Shown in pieces: positions 11,742 through 32,337 of a stretch of DNA of 48,634 bases (positions are counted from its first letter, which is position 1; every line of letters starts with the position of its first letter). Location: positions 1 through 48,634 of IMG/VR virus record IMGVR_UViG_3300030099_001480; one strand, written 5' to 3'. The DNA is from a virus. The position numbers and the translations under genes are program-made. The notes under the pieces are model-generated. The model had not been told where the DNA came from and searched no databases. It was given only the letters and a program-made list of their open reading frames with translations.

Positions 11742-14700
11742 ATGGCAATAGTGCAGGCAAAAGCGCCAAATTCGGGTAGGTACTACAACATAGAAATCGC
11801 CGGTACTACGCCTACCCCAGAAGAAAAAATAAAAATAGACGAATACATCGCTAGTGTTGATGGTCCCCCCACAGGAGAACTAATAGAAAGCGATGAGGGC
11901 CGAGGGTTTTTCGGCGCTCTTGGCGCTGGCGTGGATACAGTGCAGCTTTTATATGGTTCTACGGTAGAGGGAATAGGGAAAGATCTGGGCATAGATGCCA
12001 TTGAGGATATCGGCTCAGGCATCGTTGAAACAAACAGGCAACAGCTTCAGGAGTCTGGTGCAAACGCCACTAGGCTTGAAGATGTAAAGGATATTGGCTC
12101 TGGCCTTGACTTCTTTGTAGAGACCCTTGGCGAACAGCTTCCAAATCTTGCCACCACCGTAGCGGGCGGTATCGCTGGAAAGAAGGTAGGGGCTGCCATA
12201 GGAACTGCGGTTGCCCCCGGCGTTGGAACATTGATAGGCGGCGGGGTGGGTCTGGCTGTTGGTGGTTTGTCAGCCAATATACCCTTCTTCTTTGGAGGCA
12301 ATAGAGAGGCCCAAAGAGACGCAGATATAGCCGCTGGCAGACCTGTGGAAATTGACAACAGGGTTGCATTTTTAGCCTCTATACCACAGGCATCTCTTGA
12401 CCTCATAGCGGACTATTTTTTGGTTGGCAGGTTCCTCACCCCGAAAATGATCAGGGGCGGGGGCTTATTCAGTCGAGGAGTTAAGGGTGTGGGTGCCGGT
12501 GCGATAGCAGAGGTGCCGACAGAAATTGGTCAACAGATCATAGAAAGATATCAAGCTGGCCAAAGCATAACCAGTGAAGAGGCCTTGGAAGAATATCTAG
12601 AGGTTGGTGTAGCTGCGGGTCTCGTTGGCGGCACGGTGAAGGGAACTGTTGGCGTTGTTGGCGGCGACATCAAAAAGCAAGAAAAGGCAGAGGCTACAAG
12701 GCAGCTACAAGAAGATGCGATTGAGGAAGGTGGCAGAGCAGACGCCAGAATAAAGGCTGGTAAAGTTGGCTTTGATCTCCGTCAGCCAATAGAAGAAGAG
12801 GCAGAGCCAGAGGTTGTTGCTGAAGTATCTGACACTAATCTCACTGACGCGCAAAAGAACCTAAGCCTTGCCAACGCTGCCAAGCAGGCCACAAGGCCTT
12901 TCATACCAATGCCTTTGTCCTCTTTCCCGCCGGAGGCTGCTGATTACATCAGGCAGTCAAGGCAGGGGACATCTATCCCACTTGATGCAGATGTCACAAA
13001 GGAAGAGTTGGCCAAGGTCTTTAATCAAGATGTTGCCGATCTAGCCGAAAGAGTGCAGAAGCCAGATCTGGCTGCAAAGCCAGCATCCCCCATATTCTCT
13101 GTAAAGCAAAAAGAAGATGCCAAGAAAGAAATACAGAAAAGGGGCAAGGTCAATAAGGGTCAAATCAAGAGGGCTATAAAGACAGACTCCACTGAGGTTG
13201 TCGATGAAATCCTAAGAGATTTGGAGACTGACGGTGTTGTCAAGCACTTGGAGCGTGGAAGGTATGTCCTGCCCGAGGACAAGAGGCTTGACCCCCTATA
13301 CAAAGAAAAAGAGCAAAGGGACAAGGCAAGGGCTGAGATCACAAGGATAGAGGCCCTGAAGCAAGAGGCCATAAGGCTGAGAGACAAGGCTCTTGAGGAA
13401 AACAATCCTGTAGCAGCCGAGGCTCTGAATCGAGAGATTGAAAACATAGAGGCTACAGTTGAGCAGCCCAATACACTTCTTGCAGAGGCTGAGGACCGCA
13501 TCAGAGCCAAAGAAGATGCCGAGAAGGCTGCTGCTGATGAAAGGCTGGACAAGACAGAGCGGGAAGAAGCCGAAGAGGCGAGCAAGATCGCTATGCAGGC
13601 TGAGTCCGCAAGGTATCGCGACGAGTATCAGACTAAGCGCAAGAAGGTTGCTGCTAGGCTGAGGCAATACATGCGCGGTCTCGGCTTGGGAGATGTTGGA
13701 CTCAAGATAGATGATTACATAGAGCGCGAGGGCGGCCTCAAAGACCCCAACATTGAGGGTGTTTTTGACCCCAGCAAGAGATCAATCTCTCTGGCTATGT
13801 CGATATACGACCCATCGGTTACAGACGACGAGTTGTATGTCTCTCTTAGGAATGTTCTCAATCACGAGATCATACATGCCATCAAAGAGATTGGTCTCTT
13901 CACAGACGCCGAATACAAGACCCTAGTAAAGGCTGCCACCAACACAAAGTATGTTGCTATCAAGCAGGGCAAGGGCGAGAAGAGAGCGTACACATTCCTT
14001 GATCGCGCAATCATGCTCAATCCAAAAGATCAAAATCTCAGCGAGGCTGAGATGCAGGCCCTGTTGGAAGAAGAAGCGATTGCAGAGATGTTCCGCGCTT
14101 ATGCGGATGGACGCCTCAAGATAGTTGGCAAGCCGAAGAACCTCCTCGACAGGATAGTCAAGTTCTTCAAGGCTCTTGGCGGCGCTCACTTTGATGAGGG
14201 CTTTGACTCGGCGGCATCAATCTTTGAGAACATACAGACGCAGGACAAGACCAAGCAGCTAGGCACTAGAAAGCGTGGGCAGTTCACGCCACCAAAGAGC
14301 AAGGACTTCCTGTACTCAACCCAAAAAAGCACCATCGAACCCTTCAAGTCTACACCTGAGAGGGTCAAATCAAATGTTGCCAAGTCTCAGTTGGGTATTT
14401 CTCAGAAGCTGGCTCAAGCATCAGTCCTTCACAGGATTGATGAGAACAACAACTTCATCGACACAAGAGTGTTCAATGAAAAGGGCAAGGTGGTTGCACC
14501 ACGGGTGGCAACTTCACTGCGTATTTTGCAGGAAGAGAGGGGCAATATAACCCTCGATCCCCTAGACCCGAAAGACTTCAAGAAGATCGTCATGATCATG
14601 GCGGCAGAGGCAGAGGCTGCCCTGCGCGGTGATAAGAACGCTATCGGTTGGTACGAAGACAAAGTCGCAACCATGTTTGAGTTCATGGGCAAGATTGAGG

Positions 14701-17700
14701 GCGGCAACCAACAGATATTGAATGACCCAGAGGCTAGGGCTGCATTTACATTTGCCATGGCCGTCACATCAAACGGCTTGTCTGTAAATCAAAACTTTGT
14801 CAGCGCGATGGAGGAGTACAAGGTCTGGAAAGAGACCGGCCTCTTCAAGGCAGATGGATATGGAGACAAGGGTGCCGCAGCTATGCGGAAGGCCTTTAAG
14901 TTCTATAATACCTTGAAGAGTGATTTGAACATGACCGATGTTCAAATACAAAACTACCTCACCCAAGAGACCACGGTACGAGAGCTAAAAAAAGATCCAC
15001 TAATCCAAGAGTTGGGCATACAAGTCCCCAGCGGAGAGCTTCAAGACACAAAAGTTAGGGTTGCTCATGTTCTTGGGGCCAAGATAGGAAACGGCTTCTA
15101 CATGAACCTTAATGGTGAGTTTGATGCGCTCACCATGGACATGTGGTGGATGCGTATGTGGAACCGCATCATTGGCAAGCCATTCAAGCAGCCCACGGAT
15201 GAGACCAATAACAAGAATAGAAAGAGAATACAGGAATCTCTTGAAGGGGATCTGACAGAGTTTGAGCAGCGTCTTGTAGACGAGACCATGCTGGATGAGG
15301 GCCTTGATTCTGTTGAGGGACAGAATGTCGATCAGTTCGCCACAGCCCTGAACGCCAAATTCCAAAGGATATTCACAAGATTCGGTAAGGCAGAAGCTGA
15401 CAAGAGGCCAGAGAAAACACCTCTGTTCCAAGCGGCAGATACACATGCACAAAACCTAAGCGGCAAGTTTGAGCAGGCCACACCTAGAAACGGCACTGAG
15501 CGTGAGGTGATGAGGGCCGCAGCAGAAAGTTCTAGGGAACTTTTGAAAGAGAAGACTGGCATTGATATCAACAATGCCGATTTCCAAGCGCTTATGTGGT
15601 ATCATGAGAAAAGGCTACTGTCCTCTATGGGTACACAAAGTACAGGCGCTGATAACGATTACGTTGACGGCGCGATAGCATATGCAAGAAGAGAGGGATT
15701 CACGGATGACCAAATCGCAGAAGCACTTCCCCCAACAGACAGAGACAGAGTCTATCCTGACTCAGGTGCCAGACGACCGGATGAAGGAATTAGCAGAGAG
15801 TCTGCTGAGAACGATACCGCCGCAAACCTCAAGTACAGCGTCAGCCCAGCAAAAGCTGCGGCCATCGCCGTCAGGATTGGTGCAGGGGATAATGGACGAG
15901 TATGGCGTAGGAAGAGATCAAGCCGAGAAGTGGGCCAATATGATGTAGCTGCCGAGTACAAGGTAGCTCCATATGCGGCAAGGCTCTTCAATGAGCAGGG
16001 CGTAAAGACACCAGCCATATTTGAGTTGGCTCAAACAATGAGGTCGGCCCAACAGTTTGCTGAGGCGATTGACAGGGCCAAGATTGCTCAAGGGCCACTG
16101 GGATCTTCAGTTTATGTTTATCCTGTAGAAACTACAGCGGACGAGACAGGCTATGCCGACATGCGTCTGTTCCTCACAAGAGATGGCAAGGCTGGTTTTG
16201 CTTTGAAAGAGGGCGAGATTGACGGCCTTGTTGACATCGTCTCTGTATTCAACACGCCAGACGCTCACAAGGGCTTCTCATACCCCGCTATCAGGCTGGC
16301 GGTTGACGAGGGCGGCAACAAGCTAGACGCCTTTGACACCTTCCTGCCGGGTGCTTACAGCGCGAATGGCTTCACAATAAGATCTAGAACGGCTTGGAAC
16401 GATGAGTTCGCTCCAGAGGGATGGGACAAAGAAGAATATTCAGACTTCAACAATGGTGAGCCTGATGTCGTCTTTATGTACTACAACCCCAAGCGGAGGT
16501 TCACATACAAGAACGGCGATCAAGAAGGTGAGTTGTTCTTAGACTATGATGATGCGGTTGACGCCCAAAACGGTGCAGCCCTGAATCCATCTTCTGTAAA
16601 CCGTCAGCTAGACATCAATCGTGCCGAGACGATACAGCTTTTTGACAATGAAGAGGCCACCCTTGGTGAGATAACACCCGAACAGGAGCAAGATCTAAGG
16701 TCCATAATGGACATGATGGAGTCGCTTCCTAAATCAACAAGGAAGTTTTCTACTGCTCCGTCCAACGCTTTCGCCACGATAAATGCTCCCAAGAGATTCC
16801 CTAGGTTTGAGAAGTACAACTCTCTCTTTGGGATCATGAAGGAGAACAACAACCTGATCCCTGTCATGTTCTTCGCTGGCAACCACGGCGTGGACTCTTC
16901 TGGCAGGGCCTTCGGCTTTGGCAAGTATCACATTCAAGAACGCGGTCATGAGAAAGAGATCGTAGAGAACTCAAAGTTCCCTGACGTAGAAACTGCCGTG
17001 CAGCAGTTGATGTTTGCTTGGCACAAACAGGGTCACAAAGACGGCCCCAATGTTGTTTCTTTCCCCGATGGCGGTGGTGGCCCAGCAGTCAGTGACGCCT
17101 TCATACCTATGGGCAAAAGGGATTTGAGATTGGAGTGGTTGCGCCCGTCTCATAGCTCTCCAAAAATTGTGCTTTCCCTCCAGTACGGAAGGTTGCAAGA
17201 CCCCGAAGTTCTGTCACAGTTTGGCTTCAAGAACCCTATCGGCATTTATTCTGTAAGAACGACGTACCCAGACCTCAAATCAAAGAAGCTCAGTAGGTCG
17301 TTCTCACGGTCTACATTTGCCAATGTGGACACAGGGTCTACTAACTTTGTAGCCAACCATAACAACAATCACATTTCGTACTCTGCTGCCCATAACACCA
17401 TATCCAAAATTCTAGGATTGGGTGGTCTGGTAAGTGAGCAGAAGGCGAGGGACGTATCGCAGTCGTTCATCACTAAGTTCCAAGACACCTTCCTGCCAGT
17501 CGGTGTGATGATCGACAAGCTGAAGCAGCAGGGCATGACCATCACCGATGGCATGGATACATACCTGCAAGAGACGCTGTTCCACGGCAAGACAGGGGAC
17601 ATACTCAACTCCAAGCAGAAAGAGATGTATGAGCCTCTCGCAAGGCTTGTTAAGGATCTTGAGGTTTCTGACGCTGACTTCTCTAGGTTGACAGGCAGAG

Positions 17701-20261
17701 GCTTTAACAGTGACTTTGAAGGTGGCAACTATGCTGCCAAATCATTCAAAGAAACTGGCAGCAAGAGACTGGCGATAGTTGACGCCTATCTATACGCGCT
17801 TCATGCCAAGGAAAGAAACGCCTACATCAGATCGATCAACAACGATCTCGCCAACGGCTCTGGTATGACCGACGCCGAGGCAGACTACATTCTGTCTTGG
17901 GTTGCCTCGCTTGACTCAGGCAACAAGCAGATCATAGCTGACGTACAGCAGAGAGTGCGTCAGGTTGTTGATGATACAAATGCAATCAGGGTTGCATCTG
18001 GCCTCACCCCAGACTTCAACAGCAGTGAGCCTCTTGTTCTTGAGAGCGGGGAGATCGTACAGCCCCCGCAGTATGAGAATTATGTACCTCTCAGGGGCAT
18101 ATTCGACTCCGATGGTGAGGCAACAGAAGACGCTTCCTACACCAGCCCAGTTACCAGCCAAGGGTATTCTGTGCGCGGCAGGGAGGACAGACGAGCCTTG
18201 GGCCGCCAAGAGTATGCAACGAACATACTGGCAGCCACCTTCTTGCAAAACCAAAACGCTGTCATCAGGTCTGAGCGCAACAAGGTTGGCCTGTCGTTCT
18301 TGAACCTACTGCGCGGCGATGAGCGACTCACCAGCCAGTTCGCAGAAGAGTTGGAGAGCGTCCCCCTCACCAGAGGCTTGGTAAAGGGTGCCGTCAGAAC
18401 GATAGTAGACAGAAACGCTTTGAACGATCCCAACATCATCACCGTCAAAGAAGATGGAAAGCACGTTTACATACGGGTGAGAGATCAGAGGCTTGCCAAT
18501 GCCCTCAAGGGTGGCGCTGGTGTTTCTACCCAGACATCAAACGCTGTGGTCAGAGGCCTTGGAAAGATCAACAGATATCTTTCCAACATCAACACATCTC
18601 TGAACCCTGAGTTCATGATTACAAACATGATACGAGACGTTCAAACAGCTGGTGTGAATATCAACCAGTATGAGCAAAAGGGTCTTGTATCAGAAGTTAG
18701 ACGTAACTTTCTTGATGCTTTGAGTGCTGTAAAGCAGGTCGTCAGGGAAGACGCGAATATAGTTGATGACCCAAGCATACCTGTATCAGAACTAACAGGC
18801 GCGGCTCTTTTCAGAAGATTTCAGAGGGCTGGGGGCCAAAACGCCACAAACCAGATCAGCGACCTCAGTGATCAGGTTGCCAACATCAAGAAGCTGACAG
18901 ACGACATTGCGGAGCAGGGTCTGAAGGGTCAGTGGAACGCTGTAAAGAATAGCTTTGTTGGCAAGAAGACTGGCTCAATGTTGAAGTTCTTGGAGGACTA
19001 CAACACCGTTGTTGAGAATGGTGTCCGTGTAGCCACGTTTAAGGCATTAGCACCAAGAATTGGAGAGCAGAGAGCAGCCTTTGCCGCTCGTAATGTCACC
19101 GTGGATTTTGCCAAGGGCGGTGAATACAAGACCCTAATGAACTCCATGTACCTGTTCTACAACGCATCGCTGCAAGGCTCATTCGCCATGCTGAGTGCGG
19201 CAGCAAGGTCCAAGAAGGTTCGCAAGATATGGGTTGGCCTCATGGTGGCTGGCGTGTTGCAGGACCAGCTTCTGGCCTTCACCTCGGAGGAGGATGAAGA
19301 CGGTCAGCTTATGGCTGACAAAATCCCAGACTACATTCTGGAACACAACCTTGTGTTCAGAGATCCATTTGGCATTACGGAGCGGTCTCACATAGTCATA
19401 CCGATGCCATATGGTCTCAACATGGCGGTCAACATAGGTCGTTCTTTGAGCAGGGCGTCCAGAGGTGGGTACACGCCAGCAGAGGCAGCGGACTCAGCAA
19501 TGATGACCATGATCGACACTCTCAACCCGCTTGGCGGCACAGAGAGTTTCATTAATTTTGTTATGCCCACTGTCGTTGATCCTATCATCGATCTCTACGA
19601 GAACGAGGACTTTGCCAATAAGCCGATATACAAAGAGACATCACCATTCGATCCTACGCCTCCGCCAGACAGCCAACTCTACTGGTCAACCACATCCCCA
19701 TCAGCGAAGTGGATTGCCCAGTGGCTGAACAGCCTAGATGGATCGACAGTAGAGAAAGGCACTCTTGATGTGTCCCCAGATGTCATTGAGTTCTGGGTTG
19801 ACTATCTGACAGGTGGTATTGGCAGGTTCGTCCAGATGTCTGGTGACTTTGCATTTTCTACGCTGCCCAAAGCTGTAGAAGATGGCTTCACCGATGAGAT
19901 GATCCGGCAGGTGCCTTTCGGCAGGAAGGTTGTGTATTCGGTTTCTGAAAGAGAGGATTTGGGTTCTTTCATAGAGAAGAGAGATAGGGTTCTGCAAGCT
20001 AGAGAGGTTCTCACCGATGCTATAAGGCGGGGAGACGCAGATCTCATACAGAATACTAGGTCTAAGTACAAAGACGAACTGAGGATAGCTGGCATCATTA
20101 AGTCCATAAACAATGGACGCAATAGCCTTCTTCGCAGAATGGCTCAGATAAAAGACAACCCAAGAATACCAGAAGAGCAAAAGAAGAAGATAATAGAGAG
20201 AATGAGCAAGCAAGTAGACGCGCTCATTCTGAGGGGCAACATTGCCATGAAAACTTTATAG
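11742..20261 (+). CDS. Giant polyvalent ejected protein with zincin, GNAT-like, nuclease-like and LPD38-like regions (2839 aa)
   Basis: One uninterrupted frame of 2,839 residues. Gly-rich hydrophobic segments lie at about 140-185 and 285-307, followed by coiled coil at about 520-640. A zinc-metallopeptidase motif HEIIH is at 708-712, with an EEEAIAEMF helix near 777 as a possible third-ligand region. Residues about 1400-1590 resemble a GNAT-like domain (MRLFLTRDGKAGF, KLDAFDTFLPG, NGEPDVVFMYYNP). A segment near 1725 (FGFGKYHIQERG) resembles phage Barnase/EndoU-type nuclease domains. NTSLNPEFMITNMIRDVQTA (about 2285) matches the large-polyvalent-protein domain LPD38. Such proteins are packaged and injected with DNA to disarm host defences. 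Order and motifs are seen; activities are inferred. Confidence 0.7.
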   Translation: MAIVQAKAPNSGRYYNIEIAGTTPTPEEKIKIDEYIASVDGPPTGELIESDEGRGFFGALGAGVDTVQLLYGSTVEGIGKDLGIDAIEDIGSGIVETNRQQLQESGANATRLEDVKDIGSGLDFFVETLGEQLPNLATTVAGGIAGKKVGAAIGTAVAPGVGTLIGGGVGLAVGGLSANIPFFFGGNREAQRDADIAAGRPVEIDNRVAFLASIPQASLDLIADYFLVGRFLTPKMIRGGGLFSRGVKGVGAGAIAEVPTEIGQQIIERYQAGQSITSEEALEEYLEVGVAAGLVGGTVKGTVGVVGGDIKKQEKAEATRQLQEDAIEEGGRADARIKAGKVGFDLRQPIEEEAEPEVVAEVSDTNLTDAQKNLSLANAAKQATRPFIPMPLSSFPPEAADYIRQSRQGTSIPLDADVTKEELAKVFNQDVADLAERVQKPDLAAKPASPIFSVKQKEDAKKEIQKRGKVNKGQIKRAIKTDSTEVVDEILRDLETDGVVKHLERGRYVLPEDKRLDPLYKEKEQRDKARAEITRIEALKQEAIRLRDKALEENNPVAAEALNREIENIEATVEQPNTLLAEAEDRIRAKEDAEKAAADERLDKTEREEAEEASKIAMQAESARYRDEYQTKRKKVAARLRQYMRGLGLGDVGLKIDDYIEREGGLKDPNIEGVFDPSKRSISLAMSIYDPSVTDDELYVSLRNVLNHEIIHAIKEIGLFTDAEYKTLVKAATNTKYVAIKQGKGEKRAYTFLDRAIMLNPKDQNLSEAEMQALLEEEAIAEMFRAYADGRLKIVGKPKNLLDRIVKFFKALGGAHFDEGFDSAASIFENIQTQDKTKQLGTRKRGQFTPPKSKDFLYSTQKSTIEPFKSTPERVKSNVAKSQLGISQKLAQASVLHRIDENNNFIDTRVFNEKGKVVAPRVATSLRILQEERGNITLDPLDPKDFKKIVMIMAAEAEAALRGDKNAIGWYEDKVATMFEFMGKIEGGNQQILNDPEARAAFTFAMAVTSNGLSVNQNFVSAMEEYKVWKETGLFKADGYGDKGAAAMRKAFKFYNTLKSDLNMTDVQIQNYLTQETTVRELKKDPLIQELGIQVPSGELQDTKVRVAHVLGAKIGNGFYMNLNGEFDALTMDMWWMRMWNRIIGKPFKQPTDETNNKNRKRIQESLEGDLTEFEQRLVDETMLDEGLDSVEGQNVDQFATALNAKFQRIFTRFGKAEADKRPEKTPLFQAADTHAQNLSGKFEQATPRNGTEREVMRAAAESSRELLKEKTGIDINNADFQALMWYHEKRLLSSMGTQSTGADNDYVDGAIAYARREGFTDDQIAEALPPTDRDRVYPDSGARRPDEGISRESAENDTAANLKYSVSPAKAAAIAVRIGAGDNGRVWRRKRSSREVGQYDVAAEYKVAPYAARLFNEQGVKTPAIFELAQTMRSAQQFAEAIDRAKIAQGPLGSSVYVYPVETTADETGYADMRLFLTRDGKAGFALKEGEIDGLVDIVSVFNTPDAHKGFSYPAIRLAVDEGGNKLDAFDTFLPGAYSANGFTIRSRTAWNDEFAPEGWDKEEYSDFNNGEPDVVFMYYNPKRRFTYKNGDQEGELFLDYDDAVDAQNGAALNPSSVNRQLDINRAETIQLFDNEEATLGEITPEQEQDLRSIMDMMESLPKSTRKFSTAPSNAFATINAPKRFPRFEKYNSLFGIMKENNNLIPVMFFAGNHGVDSSGRAFGFGKYHIQERGHEKEIVENSKFPDVETAVQQLMFAWHKQGHKDGPNVVSFPDGGGGPAVSDAFIPMGKRDLRLEWLRPSHSSPKIVLSLQYGRLQDPEVLSQFGFKNPIGIYSVRTTYPDLKSKKLSRSFSRSTFANVDTGSTNFVANHNNNHISYSAAHNTISKILGLGGLVSEQKARDVSQSFITKFQDTFLPVGVMIDKLKQQGMTITDGMDTYLQETLFHGKTGDILNSKQKEMYEPLARLVKDLEVSDADFSRLTGRGFNSDFEGGNYAAKSFKETGSKRLAIVDAYLYALHAKERNAYIRSINNDLANGSGMTDAEADYILSWVASLDSGNKQIIADVQQRVRQVVDDTNAIRVASGLTPDFNSSEPLVLESGEIVQPPQYENYVPLRGIFDSDGEATEDASYTSPVTSQGYSVRGREDRRALGRQEYATNILAATFLQNQNAVIRSERNKVGLSFLNLLRGDERLTSQFAEELESVPLTRGLVKGAVRTIVDRNALNDPNIITVKEDGKHVYIRVRDQRLANALKGGAGVSTQTSNAVVRGLGKINRYLSNINTSLNPEFMITNMIRDVQTAGVNINQYEQKGLVSEVRRNFLDALSAVKQVVREDANIVDDPSIPVSELTGAALFRRFQRAGGQNATNQISDLSDQVANIKKLTDDIAEQGLKGQWNAVKNSFVGKKTGSMLKFLEDYNTVVENGVRVATFKALAPRIGEQRAAFAARNVTVDFAKGGEYKTLMNSMYLFYNASLQGSFAMLSAAARSKKVRKIWVGLMVAGVLQDQLLAFTSEEDEDGQLMADKIPDYILEHNLVFRDPFGITERSHIVIPMPYGLNMAVNIGRSLSRASRGGYTPAEAADSAMMTMIDTLNPLGGTESFINFVMPTVVDPIIDLYENEDFANKPIYKETSPFDPTPPPDSQLYWSTTSPSAKWIAQWLNSLDGSTVEKGTLDVSPDVIEFWVDYLTGGIGRFVQMSGDFAFSTLPKAVEDGFTDEMIRQVPFGRKVVYSVSEREDLGSFIEKRDRVLQAREVLTDAIRRGDADLIQNTRSKYKDELRIAGIIKSINNGRNSLLRRMAQIKDNPRIPEEQKKKIIERMSKQVDALILRGNIAMKTL

Positions 20262-20282: not shown

Positions 20283-20300
20283 AAGTTATAGGTAACTTTA
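20281..20300. repeat. Palindromic repeat, copy 2 (TAAAGTTA-TAGG-TAACTTTA)
   Basis: An 8-bp inverted repeat around TAGG, directly after the GC hairpin and overlapping the stop codon of the leftward gene. It has the same family consensus as the copy at 5944. Confidence 0.85.
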
Positions 20301-20804
20301 CGCTGCTTCTTCTTTCTCGTCCCGAAGCATACGCACCATGTCTTCAATGGGCGTCATATCAAGACCGATGTTCTCGGCAGATCCACGATACCGATTGAGC
20401 CACGCGGCAAGCTGAACACCAGCCTGACGACGCAACTCAGCCTGAGCCTCTTCATTGCTAGGATCGAAAGGCTCATAGCCGCCACCATCCTTACGCCCCT
20501 TCACAGGAGAGATGTAGGCAGGATACTCAGTTACCTTGACTGATGTGACACCGCTCTCAATGACCTCAGTCTTTGCAACGATGCGAAGACCGCTGGCCAT
20601 ATCACGAGCCATGTCGATACGATACTGACGAGCAGCATGTTCATCAGTCATCCCATAGAAAGCCGCATAGGCCTCATGGTCAGGCTGATCAGCAAGCCAA
20701 TCTACAAACTCATCAGCCCGAAATGTATTCAGTCCAGTGGATGCAAGATATTCATCAATGATCCGCTGCTTAGTGTCTTTTGAAAAGCGTACTGACTTCT
20801 TCAT
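20298..20804 (-). CDS. Conserved phage protein of unknown function (168 aa)
   Basis: A hydrophilic, probably cytoplasmic protein. It starts basic (MKKSVRFSKDTKQRIIDEYL), has a helical ADEFVDWLADQPDHEAY segment and then RQYRIDMARDMASGLRI. It ends in a helical acidic tail (MLRDEKEEAA). I have the impression of a hypothetical family in alphaproteobacterial phages but can assign no function. It has a GGGAG site about 8 bases before the ATG. It is the last gene of the leftward block and follows the periodic GG array, so its mRNA may carry that array as a 5' leader. Confidence 0.75.
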   Translation of the reverse strand: MKKSVRFSKDTKQRIIDEYLASTGLNTFRADEFVDWLADQPDHEAYAAFYGMTDEHAARQYRIDMARDMASGLRIVAKTEVIESGVTSVKVTEYPAYISPVKGRKDGGGYEPFDPSNEEAQAELRRQAGVQLAAWLNRYRGSAENIGLDMTPIEDMVRMLRDEKEEAA

Positions 20805-21221
20805 TTTATTCTCCCTTAGTACAAAGATTTTTGACCGCCTTGGCTGGCCCCATCAGAACACGCCTTGCCCTTACACACGACGCCTCAACTAGACCGCCTC
20901 GCCTCGCCAAAACTGACCGACCAGACCTAACGTCACCCAACCTTAACTCAACCGCCATGACCCACCAAGCCACACCTTTCCGTACCCCGACGCATCAGAC
21001 CAAGACCGCCTTGCCCAAACTTGCCCAGTCGAACCTTACGAGACCCAACCGAACCGCAACATACCAGAACCGCCACACCTAGAGACGCCTAGCCCTACCA
21101 GCCCTGACCATACCGAGACCGCCTAAACCGGCCATGCCTCGCCCTCCTCACCGGAACTCACCTCAACGGACCTCAACCGCCTCGCCATACCAGTCCTAAA
21201 CATATCTAACCGCGACCAGTG
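20805..21221 (-). repeat. Non-coding array with ~5-nt GG periodicity (CC on the plus strand)
   Basis: About 360 bases (20838-21196) are extremely G-poor and CC-rich on the plus strand, so the leftward transcript would read GG-N3-GG-N3. By hand count, CC dinucleotides keep a strict 5-base register in blocks. The register slips only by -1 between blocks, giving phases mod 5 of 3,2,1,0,4,3,2,1,0. Between 21006 and 21065 almost every pentamer is NNNCC. There is no credible reading frame on either strand, because a 5-base period cannot be codon-based. It lies between the genes at 21267 and 20804. Adjacent 2-tier G-quadruplexes or an RNA- or DNA-binding protein array are possible. Confidence 0.85.
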
Positions 21222-21245
21222 AGAGGGGCGAATATCGCCCCCCTC
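21222..21245. terminator. GC hairpin at the edge of the GG array
   Basis: AGAGGGGCGA pairs with TCGCC(CC)CCTCT around ATA, with two extra C on one side. On the plus strand it is followed by ATTTTG; on the minus strand no T tract follows. It could therefore be a leaky terminator or a processing site between the 253-aa gene and the array. Confidence 0.55.
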
Positions 21246-21252
21246 TATTTTG

Positions 21253-21268
21253 AAAGTTACAGGTAACT
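21253..21268. repeat. Palindromic repeat, copy 3 (AAAGTTAC-AG-GTAACT)
   Basis: The copy overlaps the stop codon of the leftward 253-aa gene and lies next to a GC hairpin, the same hairpin-palindrome pairing as at 20259-20300. Confidence 0.85.
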
Positions 21269-22028
21269 AAGCAGCCCGACGAAGGCGCTCTTCCTGCAAA
21301 TACTGCATGAGTTCCGCCGTCTGCTCATCTGCACAGATCGGCTGCTCCATGGCCAGCTTCTGGACCTCACGGTCCTCTTTGGTGATCTCGTCCCAGATTT
21401 CCTGATAGTCACCCATGTCCTCAGCACCAGAGACTGCGAAGGTGCCGTAAGAGCCACGGCCCTTCTCCTGACGGAAGTCACCGATGCCGACGATAGTGCC
21501 AGCGTTGGAAAGAAGGGAGACAATGGAGTGTGCGCTCAAAGTCGGAACGACATACTTCACAGTCACCTCTGCACACCACTGGGGGAGATATGCACGAGTA
21601 CGCACATCAGGCGTCTTGTTCATATCGGCAGAGCGTACAATATCCATCTTCAGCAATGGCTTGCCCCAGATCTGAATGTGACTTTCGGGAAGAAAGATCA
21701 GACGCTGAACGCTGGTCTTAGTGATGCCGCCAGTCTCAAGCGCGGCAGTAGCCATGGCACCCTTTACACCAGCAGCAGGGAAGCAAAGGTAAGTATCCCC
21801 AGTATCTTTCTTGTAGACACTGTCACGAAACTCAGCTTCTGGGTTGTGCTTGATGTCCTTCTTCTGAGCAGCAGTCTTCTTGCCGCCACCAACCAGAAGA
21901 TCACGCCATGCCTTAGCACCCATAGAGTTGAAATACATTGGCGTCTGGCCAATCATACGCAACTTGATATGTCCCTGCTTTAATGCGTGGATTTCCATAG
22001 TCTCAGTGGTCTTTTTCGATACAGCCAT
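21267..22028 (-). CDS. Phage early protein, possible RAMP/Cas7-like RNA-binding fold (253 aa)
   Basis: The layout is: a strand KLRMIGQTPMYFNS (about 21-35), then YLCFPAAGVKGAMATAALETGG (about 80-102), a KPLLKMDIVR strand, RTRAYLPQWCAEV, and a Gly-rich end GIGDFRQEKGRGSYGTF (about 204-220). In RAMP proteins (Cas7, Cmr4) a 'P-x-S-x-(I/L)KG' helix start and a Gly-rich RNA-contacting loop occur in comparable places. A similar family is widespread in phages without known role. The fold call is an inference from motifs only. The gene is promoter-proximal (TTGACA at 22087-22092), with an AAAGGAGG site before the ATG, and the GG-periodic array follows it directly. Confidence 0.55.
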   Translation of the reverse strand: MAVSKKTTETMEIHALKQGHIKLRMIGQTPMYFNSMGAKAWRDLLVGGGKKTAAQKKDIKHNPEAEFRDSVYKKDTGDTYLCFPAAGVKGAMATAALETGGITKTSVQRLIFLPESHIQIWGKPLLKMDIVRSADMNKTPDVRTRAYLPQWCAEVTVKYVVPTLSAHSIVSLLSNAGTIVGIGDFRQEKGRGSYGTFAVSGAEDMGDYQEIWDEITKEDREVQKLAMEQPICADEQTAELMQYLQEERLRRAA

Positions 22029-30094: not shown

Positions 30095-31240
30095 TCAGTC
30101 TCCCATTTTCAGAATGGCAACCTCACCCCAAGGGGCTTTGTCGGAGCCAATGTCGGTTGATACCCAAAGCACCGGATAGTCCGGCTTGTCGGGGAAGTCG
30201 GTGATCTCCAAGTCAGTCAGGACCACCATGTTGTCACAAGGCAACTGATGCTCATCGACATAGTTGAAAGCCGGTGTGACGCGAGTGCCGCCCCTGCCGG
30301 ACAGTCCAACCTTTTCGATGACCTCGCCTTGCTCATACCGCTTCACAGTCTGCACCTTGGTGTCGAAGGTGATGACCGTGACAGAGTTGGGCTTGTGTTC
30401 ATCACTGATGGCGTTGATCTCACCAAGGAAGTGGGACCATTCATCATCAGTCACAGAGGCTGAACTGTCGCCAAGGATGATGATGTCACCGGCACCCATG
30501 CGGTCAACGCTGGGCAGATAGATGCCCTGATTGAACCATGCGTTCTTCTGGGGCCGACGCCATGTGTAGTCGTCAGGCTGGTCACCACCGATGAAACGAT
30601 GCAGAACATCACGCCAGTCAACCTGTGAGCGGCGCATGACCTGCACAAGCTGATCGATGGCAGCAGGAAGGTTGCCGCGAGACTTGGCAGCATCAGCGGC
30701 CATGATGACCTTGATGTCCATCTCAGCCTCAACCTGTTGGGTCTCAGCCTCGGACATCTCGCTGCCGTCCTCACCCTGCATGGGTATGACCTCACCCCAT
30801 GCTGGGCCATCTTCTGGCACATCATCGTCAGGCATCTCGGCGTAAATCTTCTCAGCAGCCCAGCCCTTGAACTTGTTCCACTCAGGCTTGCTGGTGCTGA
30901 ACAGGCCTTGCTCAGGGATAGAGAAGCCACTGTCGATCAGGATATCGTTGATGGCGATATCGGTGCAGACGTTCCACTTTTTGTGGACGCGCTTGCCCAT
31001 ACGCAGCATGTGCTTGAAGACAACGTGCAGCACCTCATGCGCGATCACGCCCATGACATGGTCCTTGTCCAAGCTGTCAACGAAGGCACGGTTCCAGAGA
31101 ATGGACCGGCCATCTGTCGCCATAGTCGGAACCTTGTCAGTCTCGACAAAGTTGAGACCGGCAGCACATGAGCCGAAGAATGGATGCCGCAGCATCAGTT
31201 GCGTCTTGGCCTGTGCAACCTTGAGATTTGCATCAGTCAT
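30095..31240 (-). CDS. Metallopeptidase-like / VWA domain protein (DUF2201-type, 381 aa)
   Basis: The N-terminal half carries a zincin motif HEVLH (68-72) with a further His at 77, as in the DUF2201 'putative metallopeptidase' domain. The C-terminal half is a VWA domain with a MIDAS motif D258-S-S260-A-S262 (LGDSSASV). Bacterial relatives pair with MoxR-like AAA+ ATPases to remodel target proteins or complexes. The AAA+ gene lies directly upstream in the same operon. The phage target is unknown. Good GGGAG site. Confidence 0.8.
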   Translation of the reverse strand: MTDANLKVAQAKTQLMLRHPFFGSCAAGLNFVETDKVPTMATDGRSILWNRAFVDSLDKDHVMGVIAHEVLHVVFKHMLRMGKRVHKKWNVCTDIAINDILIDSGFSIPEQGLFSTSKPEWNKFKGWAAEKIYAEMPDDDVPEDGPAWGEVIPMQGEDGSEMSEAETQQVEAEMDIKVIMAADAAKSRGNLPAAIDQLVQVMRRSQVDWRDVLHRFIGGDQPDDYTWRRPQKNAWFNQGIYLPSVDRMGAGDIIILGDSSASVTDDEWSHFLGEINAISDEHKPNSVTVITFDTKVQTVKRYEQGEVIEKVGLSGRGGTRVTPAFNYVDEHQLPCDNMVVLTDLEITDFPDKPDYPVLWVSTDIGSDKAPWGEVAILKMGD

Positions 31241-31252
31241 ATCGTACTCCCA

Positions 31253-31292
31253 AAAAGTTAGATGGAACTTTTGAGGGGCGGCGAACCGCCCC
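31253..31292 (-). promoter_or_regulatory. Hairpin plus palindrome header, copy 8
   Basis: GGGGCGG-TTCG-CCGCCCC hairpin (31275-31292), then a 20-base palindrome with AAAAGTT/AACTTTT arms (31253-31272), then GGGAG and the VWA-protein ATG at 31240. The 20-mer is identical to the one at 32384. Confidence 0.82.
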
Positions 31293-31299
31293 CCATAGA

Positions 31300-32337
31300 T
31301 TAGGCTGCAAACAGATCAGCCCCACCGTTGATGATCCACTGCCGGACAGCCTCAGATTTCTTGATCTCAGGGTCACGAGTGACAGCGTCCTTGATGCAGA
31401 AGCCAGCGAACTCTTGCTGATCAAGCCGCTTGAGATAGCGGACGATGTTGCCAGCGTTGCCCTGCGTCATGCGATAGGCAAGGCCGGATGACATGGCATA
31501 GAGAACCATTGCATCCTGCGGCACCTCGGCACCGTCAGGGTTGCTGATGATGCCGTCTAGGTCAGGCATGTTGGCTTTCATCTTGCGGAAGCCGGTGAAG
31601 TCAGCCGTCGCAGGACGGCCAACCGTACCAGCGATAGCCTCGGCCTCTGCGACAGGCGACAGGCCCCATGACAGGATGGTGCTGACGCGATCCCATGAAC
31701 GGAAAGATGGGTTGGCGTTGGCGTCACGATCAAACTTGACGGCGAACTCAGGCCGTGCGCGGAGATATGCGGTAACGTCCTCATGCACACCGTTGGCCAC
31801 CATGTAGGCAATAGCGTCCTCAACGTCAGGGTCAATCTCCAAGAACATCAGGCAGTCCTTGAGATGCGACGGCATGTTGTTGGTGCCAGCCCGATCAGAC
31901 ATGCGGTTGCCAGCGGCGCAGATCACGACATTGTGCGGCAACTCAAACTCACCGACGCGCCATTCGTTGATAAGCTGACGCCCAACATTCATGTTGGCGA
32001 CAGGTGCCTGTGGCAACTCATCCAAGAAGAGGACAACCACCTCATAGCTGGCGGCCATCTCGTGTATGCGGCGAAGCCAGAATGGCATCACACGGTGAGC
32101 CTCACCGTCGATCAGCGCGATAATGCCGTTCACCTCGGCGGCATCCATCGATGCCAGCGAAAGGATGTACAGGCCCCAGTCACGCTCTGTCGTGATCTGT
32201 TGCACCATAGATGTCTTGCCGATACCCATAGTGGCCTCGGCATAAGGTATGGTCCGGTCAGCATCACGGCTTTCGCGGTTGGCGATCTGGCTGTCGAATG
32301 AAGCCTCGAAAATAGTCTTAGCAAGTGAAAGTTTCAT
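31300..32337 (-). CDS. MoxR-like AAA+ ATPase (345 aa)
   Basis: Walker A is EATMGIGKTS (34-43), Walker B LFLDELPQA (103-111), followed by an AAGNRMSDRAG sensor-1-like segment (about 137-147). The first Gly of Walker A is replaced by Ala. Organisation fits MoxR-type ATPases, which act with VWA proteins; the VWA gene follows in the operon. The pair may act as a chaperone or remodelling machine on a host or phage complex. Start follows TTTTGGGAGACGTTTCGTT. Confidence 0.8.
   Translation of the reverse strand: MKLSLAKTIFEASFDSQIANRESRDADRTIPYAEATMGIGKTSMVQQITTERDWGLYILSLASMDAAEVNGIIALIDGEAHRVMPFWLRRIHEMAASYEVVVLFLDELPQAPVANMNVGRQLINEWRVGEFELPHNVVICAAGNRMSDRAGTNNMPSHLKDCLMFLEIDPDVEDAIAYMVANGVHEDVTAYLRARPEFAVKFDRDANANPSFRSWDRVSTILSWGLSPVAEAEAIAGTVGRPATADFTGFRKMKANMPDLDGIISNPDGAEVPQDAMVLYAMSSGLAYRMTQGNAGNIVRYLKRLDQQEFAGFCIKDAVTRDPEIKKSEAVRQWIINGGADLFAA

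What the first reader, a model, noticed from the sequence alone, without database searches (positions are those of the whole stretch)
20838..21196. Non-coding array with strict ~5-nt GG/CC periodicity and one-way phase slips
Seen directly: CC on the plus strand (GG in leftward RNA) recurs every 5 bases over about 360 bases. By hand count the register moves only by -1 between blocks, through phases 3,2,1,0,4,3,2,1,0. That gives an average unit of about 4.9 bases and about 73 units. The other three bases vary, so this is not an ordinary microsatellite. A 5-base period cannot encode protein. I know of no described phage element like it. Possible roles are tandem 2-tier G-quadruplexes (GG-N3 four times), a scaffold for a polymerising RNA- or ssDNA-binding protein, or a sponge RNA.
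Basis: partly seen in the sequence, partly recalled or inferred. Interest (0 to 1): 0.86.

Follow-up and report, generated by a model that had tools for sequence, protein, structure and literature searches.

The report
Phage VIPR guide-RNA array (GGY/NN repeats)
The odd 5-base rhythm is a row of seven gapped RNA guides, made by a marine phage beside a CRISPR-like guide-binding protein, and at least two of them spell conserved parts of genes in other mobile elements (an integrase and the queuosine gene queC), so it is a newly decoded member of the recently described VIPR phage-against-phage systems.

Summary
On the minus strand, 20835-21216 tiles as G-K-Y-N-N pentamers (tiling score 103 versus 72.9±2.6 in shuffles) with 4-nt slips. 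Related phages carry the same array at the same place (79 of 80 loci). It lies directly behind one gene (window 21267-22028, minus strand; 111 of 123 distinct arrays). That protein folds as a CRISPR RAMP (all 49 PDB fold matches at E<1e-3 are Csm3/Cas7-like) and its profile hits the solved SUSP1 Vipr protein (E=4e-7). This matches VIPR, described in a 2026 preprint: vrRNAs of GGY/NN repeats whose NN pairs read DNA with a 1-nt skip. I tested the rule independently: guides cut at the slips find targets with skip 1 (17 of 599 at E<0.01) but not with skips 0, 2, 3 or shuffled NN (1-2 each). Match is 94% inside the slips and 24% outside, so the slips are guide boundaries. The window's guide 4 reads a tyrosine-integrase box (exact 24/24 nt in a marine alphaproteobacterium). 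Guide 5 reads the QueC motif IPNTFVPARN (20/20 nt, two phages). Guide 7 possibly reads a phage late gene. Verdict: new member of a known, very new kind; not a G-quadruplex or sponge.

The parts
20835..21216 (-). VIPR guide (vrRNA) array: GKYNN pentamers in 7 blocks
   Evidence: DP score 212.6 against at most 19.6 elsewhere in the window; conserved in relatives
21182..21216 (-). guide 1 (7 NN: GC TA AT TA CT AT GA); similar first block seen in L002, L007 and L042
   Evidence: target not searched (too short)
21124..21177 (-). guide 2 (GA CC GA GA CC GA G? GA AT CG TA; one 4-nt unit inside)
   Evidence: no exact target in viral contigs
21075..21119 (-). guide 3 (TC AT CA CT AG TA GT TA GT)
   Evidence: no exact target in viral contigs
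21011..21070 (-). guide 4 (CT AT GC TC TG CT AA TC TG AA TG AA): reads the tyrosine-integrase box FHDLRHEAIS antisense, wobble positions skipped
   Evidence: 28 integrase hits, 21-24 of 24 nt
20957..21006 (-). guide 5 (TT CT GC GG AC AA GT TT GG AT): reads the QueC motif IPNTFVPARN antisense
   Evidence: 20/20 nt in two virus contigs
20899..20952 (-). guide 6 (GA AA TG GA TA CT C? CA TT GA GA; one 4-nt unit inside)
   Evidence: no exact target
20840..20894 (-). guide 7 (TA GA GT GT AG AA GT CT GG CA AA): candidate target is a small late-region gene of another phage
   Evidence: 19 of 22 nt, single hit, weaker
20834..20839 (-). delimiter GGCGGT closing the array; copies also at 20893, 20951, 21005, 21069, 21118 and 21176
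   Evidence: boundary test
21218..21250 (-). hairpin between the vipr stop codon and the array
   Evidence: a stable hairpin in 58 of 59 distinct relatives
21267..22028 (-). vipr gene, 253 aa, RAMP/Cas7-like (phrog_4652)
20298..20804 (-). g168: 168-aa protein that travels with vipr and the array, candidate vipr-accessory protein (vap)
   Evidence: 87 of 123 array loci, other window neighbours 6-8; no Pfam match to the window protein, no significant fold match

Best explanation
The region is the guide array of a VIPR system. The leftward transcript gives RNA in which each pentamer (GKY+NN) is held by one subunit of the adjacent Vipr RAMP protein (21267-22028). GKY contacts protein; the NN pairs face outward and pair with double-stranded DNA as NNx NNx NNx, skipping one base, usually the codon wobble base. 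Each block between GGCG|GTY slips is one guide of 7-12 NN pairs. The complex binds genes of rival mobile elements and blocks their transcription; here one guide reads integrases, one QueC and one possibly a phage late gene. Shown here by computation: array, gene pairing, fold, skip rule, guide boundaries, two good natural targets. Inferred from the published system: transcription, processing, protein binding, repression.
For: Periodicity far beyond shuffles. Family-wide conservation at the locus. The array pattern alone leads back to the same gene in unrelated contigs, 111 of 123 distinct arrays; most of the 12 without it begin within 220 nt of a contig end, where the gene would lie. AF2 pLDDT 85, all 49 Foldseek PDB matches at E<1e-3 are CRISPR RAMPs. 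Profile hit to PDB 36pp 'SUSP1 Vipr protein', E=4.4e-7. Published VIPR vrRNAs are YNNGG repeats with a 1-nt skip. Skip rule reproduced independently: 17 hits at E<0.01 for skip 1 (best 22/22 nt) against 1, 1, 2 for skips 0, 2, 3 and 2 for shuffled NN. Match inside slips 93.7%, outside 24.4%. Window guide 4: 23 of 23 GTDB hits and 5 of 7 virus hits in one integrase motif. Guide 5: both hits 20/20 nt in QueC. Wobble skipped in these targets and in the coding targets checked. No self-target above 16 of 21 nt. Substitution between close relatives: position 1 1.3%, positions 4 and 5 14%.
Against: No RNA data for this phage. Three of the seven guides (2, 3, 6) gave no exact target, guide 1 was not searched, and guide 7 has one imperfect hit. 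Published type II vrRNAs carry a structured 3' tail that I do not see between blocks. Guides 4 and 5 hit conserved protein motifs, so the exact victim element is not identified.
Confidence: 0.96

Rival explanations
1. Tandem 2-tier G-quadruplexes or another structured G-rich RNA or DNA element.
For: GG recurs every 5 nt in the leftward strand.
Against: Position 2 is T in 33% of units and position 3 is almost never G; fold energies are not better than shuffles; it does not explain the target matches of the NN bases.
Confidence: 0.01
2. Protein-binding sponge or decoy RNA (for example for a host RNA-binding protein), the NN being filler.
For: Constant GKY triplets with 2-nt spacers resemble ring-protein sites such as TRAP (own knowledge).
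Against: NN strings spell gene motifs with a 1-nt skip far beyond controls, and match stops exactly at the slips; a RAMP gene is nearly always adjacent.
Confidence: 0.01
3. VIPR array whose guides act on the phage's own or host genes for regulation rather than on rivals.
For: queC occurs in many bacteria and phages (own knowledge), and integrase motifs are broadly conserved, so host copies could be hit.
Against: No self-target in the window; in ten genomes that carry the integrase site only one place came within 3 mismatches of the guide-5 site, no more than the reversed-pattern control; hits for guide 5 lie on virus-classed contigs, one beside terminase and portal genes; relatives' guides hit terminase, prohead protease, capsid and tape measure genes.
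Confidence: 0.08

Closest known systems
VIPR systems (Vipr + vrRNA; PMC13142463, bioRxiv 2026.04.26.720920), SUSP1 / type II
   Same: RAMP-like protein gene beside non-coding GGY/NN pentamer RNA; NN code with 1-nt skip; skipped base is the codon wobble; phage-encoded; targets are rival mobile elements; an accessory gene beside it.
   Different: Window protein is 253 aa with a helical C-terminal part (SUSP1 chain 202 aa); guides are fused head to tail and separated by a GGCG|GTY slip, no structured 3' tail seen between them; second letter is often T (GTY); accessory gene g168 has no recognised fold. The preprint mentions staggered arrays with overlapping vrRNAs, which may be this type; its supplement was not readable.
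Class 1 CRISPR effector backbone proteins (Cas7/Csm3, Cas7-11, type VII Cas7)
   Same: Fold; RNA held in a fixed repeat length per subunit, with bases periodically excluded from pairing.
   Different: 5-nt not 6-nt step, 2 of 5 bases read, no CRISPR repeats, no cas genes nearby.

Membership tests
VIPR | RAMP-fold Vipr protein with G-loop, homologous to known Vipr | tested here: met
   Foldseek all RAMPs; profile hit to 36pp SUSP1 Vipr E=4.4e-7 covering the G-loop region; GIGDFRQEKGRGSYG conserved
VIPR | Adjacent non-coding RNA of alternating GGY/NN pentamers | tested here: met
   G-K-Y rather than strict GGY
VIPR | NN hypervariable, GGY conserved | tested here: met
   substitution 1.3/7.7/9.5/14.2/14.4% at positions 1-5 between close relatives
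VIPR | NN code reads DNA with a 1-nt skip | tested here: met
VIPR | Guide of 9-16 repeats | tested here: met
   mostly 8-12 five-nt units per block over the family; window blocks 7-12
VIPR | 3' tail with conserved structure (seen in type II) | tested here: inconclusive
   no tail between blocks in the window; a conserved hairpin lies 5' of the array
VIPR | vap accessory gene in the locus | tested here: inconclusive
   g168 travels with the pair but could not be matched to vap1-6; no significant fold match
VIPR | Vipr-vrRNA complex forms and represses transcription | not testable with these tools
   needs experiment
CRISPR-Cas | cas genes and repeat-spacer array with contiguous spacers | tested here: not met
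   no cas profile hit to the window protein (weak Cas5g hits to one other member only); guides match only with periodic skips

The most novel reading that the evidence does not exclude
A VIPR subtype not covered by the published seven: tail-less, contiguous arrays of up to tens of guides in which a 4-nt GGCG unit followed by GTY is at once the separator and probably the processing or end-binding signal, with a C-terminally extended Vipr and a new accessory protein (g168).
Probability: 0.3. Interest if true: 0.68.

Novelty: new member of a known kind. Interest (0 to 1): 0.6.

Why it matters
It is an independent, sequence-only confirmation of the non-contiguous VIPR code in uncultured marine phages, with a clear answer to what the phase slips are (guide boundaries). 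It shows what a marine podovirus aims at: integrases, the QueC pathway (known from some phages for 7-deazaguanine DNA modification; own knowledge) and, in relatives, packaging and capsid genes. Any phage genome with such an array can now be decoded to predict its rivals. It also shows that arrays in sequenced actinobacteriophages are annotated as hypothetical proteins.

Tried and rejected
RNA folding of both strands: no structure beyond shuffles. Rfam: no match. Nucleotide search of INPHARED: no match. Promoter/terminator scan: at shuffle level, though one terminator-like hit is the hairpin at 21225-21241. Ring-protein sites (TRAP-like triplets with 2-nt spacers) and SSAP binding (the phage has a Sak) were considered until the RAMP fold and target matches ruled them out. 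Guides 2, 3 and 6: exact patterns found nothing in viral contigs. Guide-5 site in ten genomes carrying the integrase site: one place with 3 mismatches, no more than the reversed-pattern control. Arrays in HTVC027P (first 20 kb) and CRP-901 (first 48 kb), relatives by portal/terminase: none. g168 fold: well predicted, no significant PDB match.

Full report
The observation. Tiling 20838-21196 into CC-led units gives 73 units, 65 of 5 nt and 8 of 4 nt, score 103 against 72.9±2.6 in 1000 dinucleotide shuffles. On the minus strand the array spans 20835-21216 and reads as G-K-Y-N-N. Most slips sit at one motif, GGCG|GTY, every 49-64 nt; two more lie inside blocks 2 and 6. No other place in the window scores above 20.

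Conservation. The gene just 5' of the array in the leftward direction (21267-22028, phrog_4652, unknown function) brought in 80 loci from IMG/VR; 79 have an array directly 3' of it, 0.2-1.1 kb long. Over 58 distinct arrays there are 5063 units of 5 nt, 555 of 4 nt (452 GGCG) and only 20 of 6. A scan with an array pattern alone found arrays in many more contigs, up to 501 units (L095) and on a contig of 376 kb (L141). Of 123 distinct arrays 111 have the same gene upstream, median 39 nt; most of the 12 others begin within 220 nt of a contig end, and L143 and L177 truly lack it within 4 kb. Gordonia phages UmaThurman and Ecliptus and Mycobacterium phage Donkeykong, the nearest cultured carriers of the gene, have arrays too.

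The protein. AF2 on 26 relatives gives pLDDT 85, pTM 0.80. All 49 PDB matches at E<1e-3 are CRISPR RAMPs. The family profile hits one PDB sequence, 36pp 'SUSP1 Vipr protein', E=4.4e-7, over the region ending in the glycine-rich loop.

The known system. PMC13142463 describes VIPR: a phage RAMP and vrRNAs of YNNGG repeats; the NN pairs read dsDNA with a 1-nt skip, mostly the wobble base; seven types, some with staggered arrays. I found no other paper.

Independent test of the code. I cut every array at its slips and searched 599 guides of at least 9 NN against 1.57 Mb of the fetched loci with arrays masked. Hits at E<0.01: skip 1, 17; skip 0, 1; skip 2, 1; skip 3, 2; skip 1 with shuffled NN, 2. 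The best is 22 of 22 nt. Guides of different phages converge on one site in a large terminase gene; others hit a prohead protease, a capsid gene (antisense), a tape measure gene and a gene resembling a small terminase; the gene names are my reading of the translations. In these the skipped base is the wobble base. For 17 guides with good targets, match is 93.7% of 350 nt inside the slips and 24.4% of 316 nt just outside: the slips are guide boundaries. Inside values are inflated by selection of hits; the outside value is not.

The window's own guides. Guide 4, first 9 NN: 7 hits in IMG/VR, 5 in the tyrosine-integrase box FHD(L/F)RHEAISR, and over all 12 NN they match 22-23 of 24 nt, while the two non-integrase hits match 18. 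First 10 NN in 257 Gb of GTDB: 23 hits, about 0.5 expected for random sequence (own estimate from 20 fixed bases), all 23 in that box, 21-24 of 24 nt, exact in marine single cell AG-900-J20; many are SAR116 or other marine alphaproteobacteria. Because the motif is conserved these hits are not independent events; the evidence is that the guide spells the motif. Guide 5: both hits are 20 of 20 nt in QueC, reading IPNTFVPARN antisense, one on a contig with terminase, portal and primase genes. Guide 7: one hit, 19 of 22 nt, in frame, in a small gene next to a virion gene of the same family as one in the window; with chance expectation near one hit this is only suggestive. Guides 2, 3 and 6 gave none; guide 1 is too short to search. 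The window has no self-target and no integrase or queC.

Selection and growth. Between 32 pairs of related arrays the substitution rate is 1.3, 7.7, 9.5, 14.2 and 14.4% for positions 1-5, and gaps favour 5, 10, 15 and also 39-54 nt, that is whole units or whole guides.

Module and host. g168 (20298-20804) accompanies the pair in 87 of 123 loci, while sak, exonuclease and other neighbours of the window do so in 6-8, so vipr-array-g168 looks like a cassette moving between phage backbones. g168 has no significant fold match; I call it a candidate vap. Terminase and portal place the window nearest Pelagibacter phages HTVC027P/HTVC023P and the phage record 023Pt_psg01 at 44-58% identity. Host unknown; the SAR116 integrase hits are a hint only.

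What is shown and what is inferred. Shown by computation: periodicity, conservation, gene pairing, fold, skip rule, boundaries, two strong natural targets. Inferred from the published system: transcription, processing at the slips, Vipr filament on the RNA, transcriptional repression of rivals.

Noticed in passing
L201:5625-5948 (Gordonia phage UmaThurman gp40) and L203:4450-4836 (Mycobacterium phage Donkeykong gp48): Annotated hypothetical proteins lie over the guide arrays (arrays at L201:5608-5936, L203:4465-4814) and are probably not genes.
   Followed up: partly
L095:2036-4499: Largest array seen: about 2.46 kb, 501 units.
   Followed up: no
L143:8600-8894 and L177:7047-7248: Arrays without a vipr gene in the 4 kb examined; could be orphan arrays or have the gene elsewhere.
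   Followed up: no
L110 and L137: Arrays with more 6-nt units (10 and 3) and lower scores per unit; perhaps another consensus or decay.
   Followed up: no
window 11742-20261: Very large ORF (2839 aa) with virion-protein family hits.
   Followed up: no
window 30095-32337: Phage-borne pair of a DUF2201 metallopeptidase/VWA-like protein and an ATPase-family protein (phrog_1297).
   Followed up: no
window 21218-21250 and relatives: Stable hairpin between vipr stop and array in 58 of 59 distinct relatives with differing sequence; in L042 followed by a T run like a terminator.
   Followed up: partly
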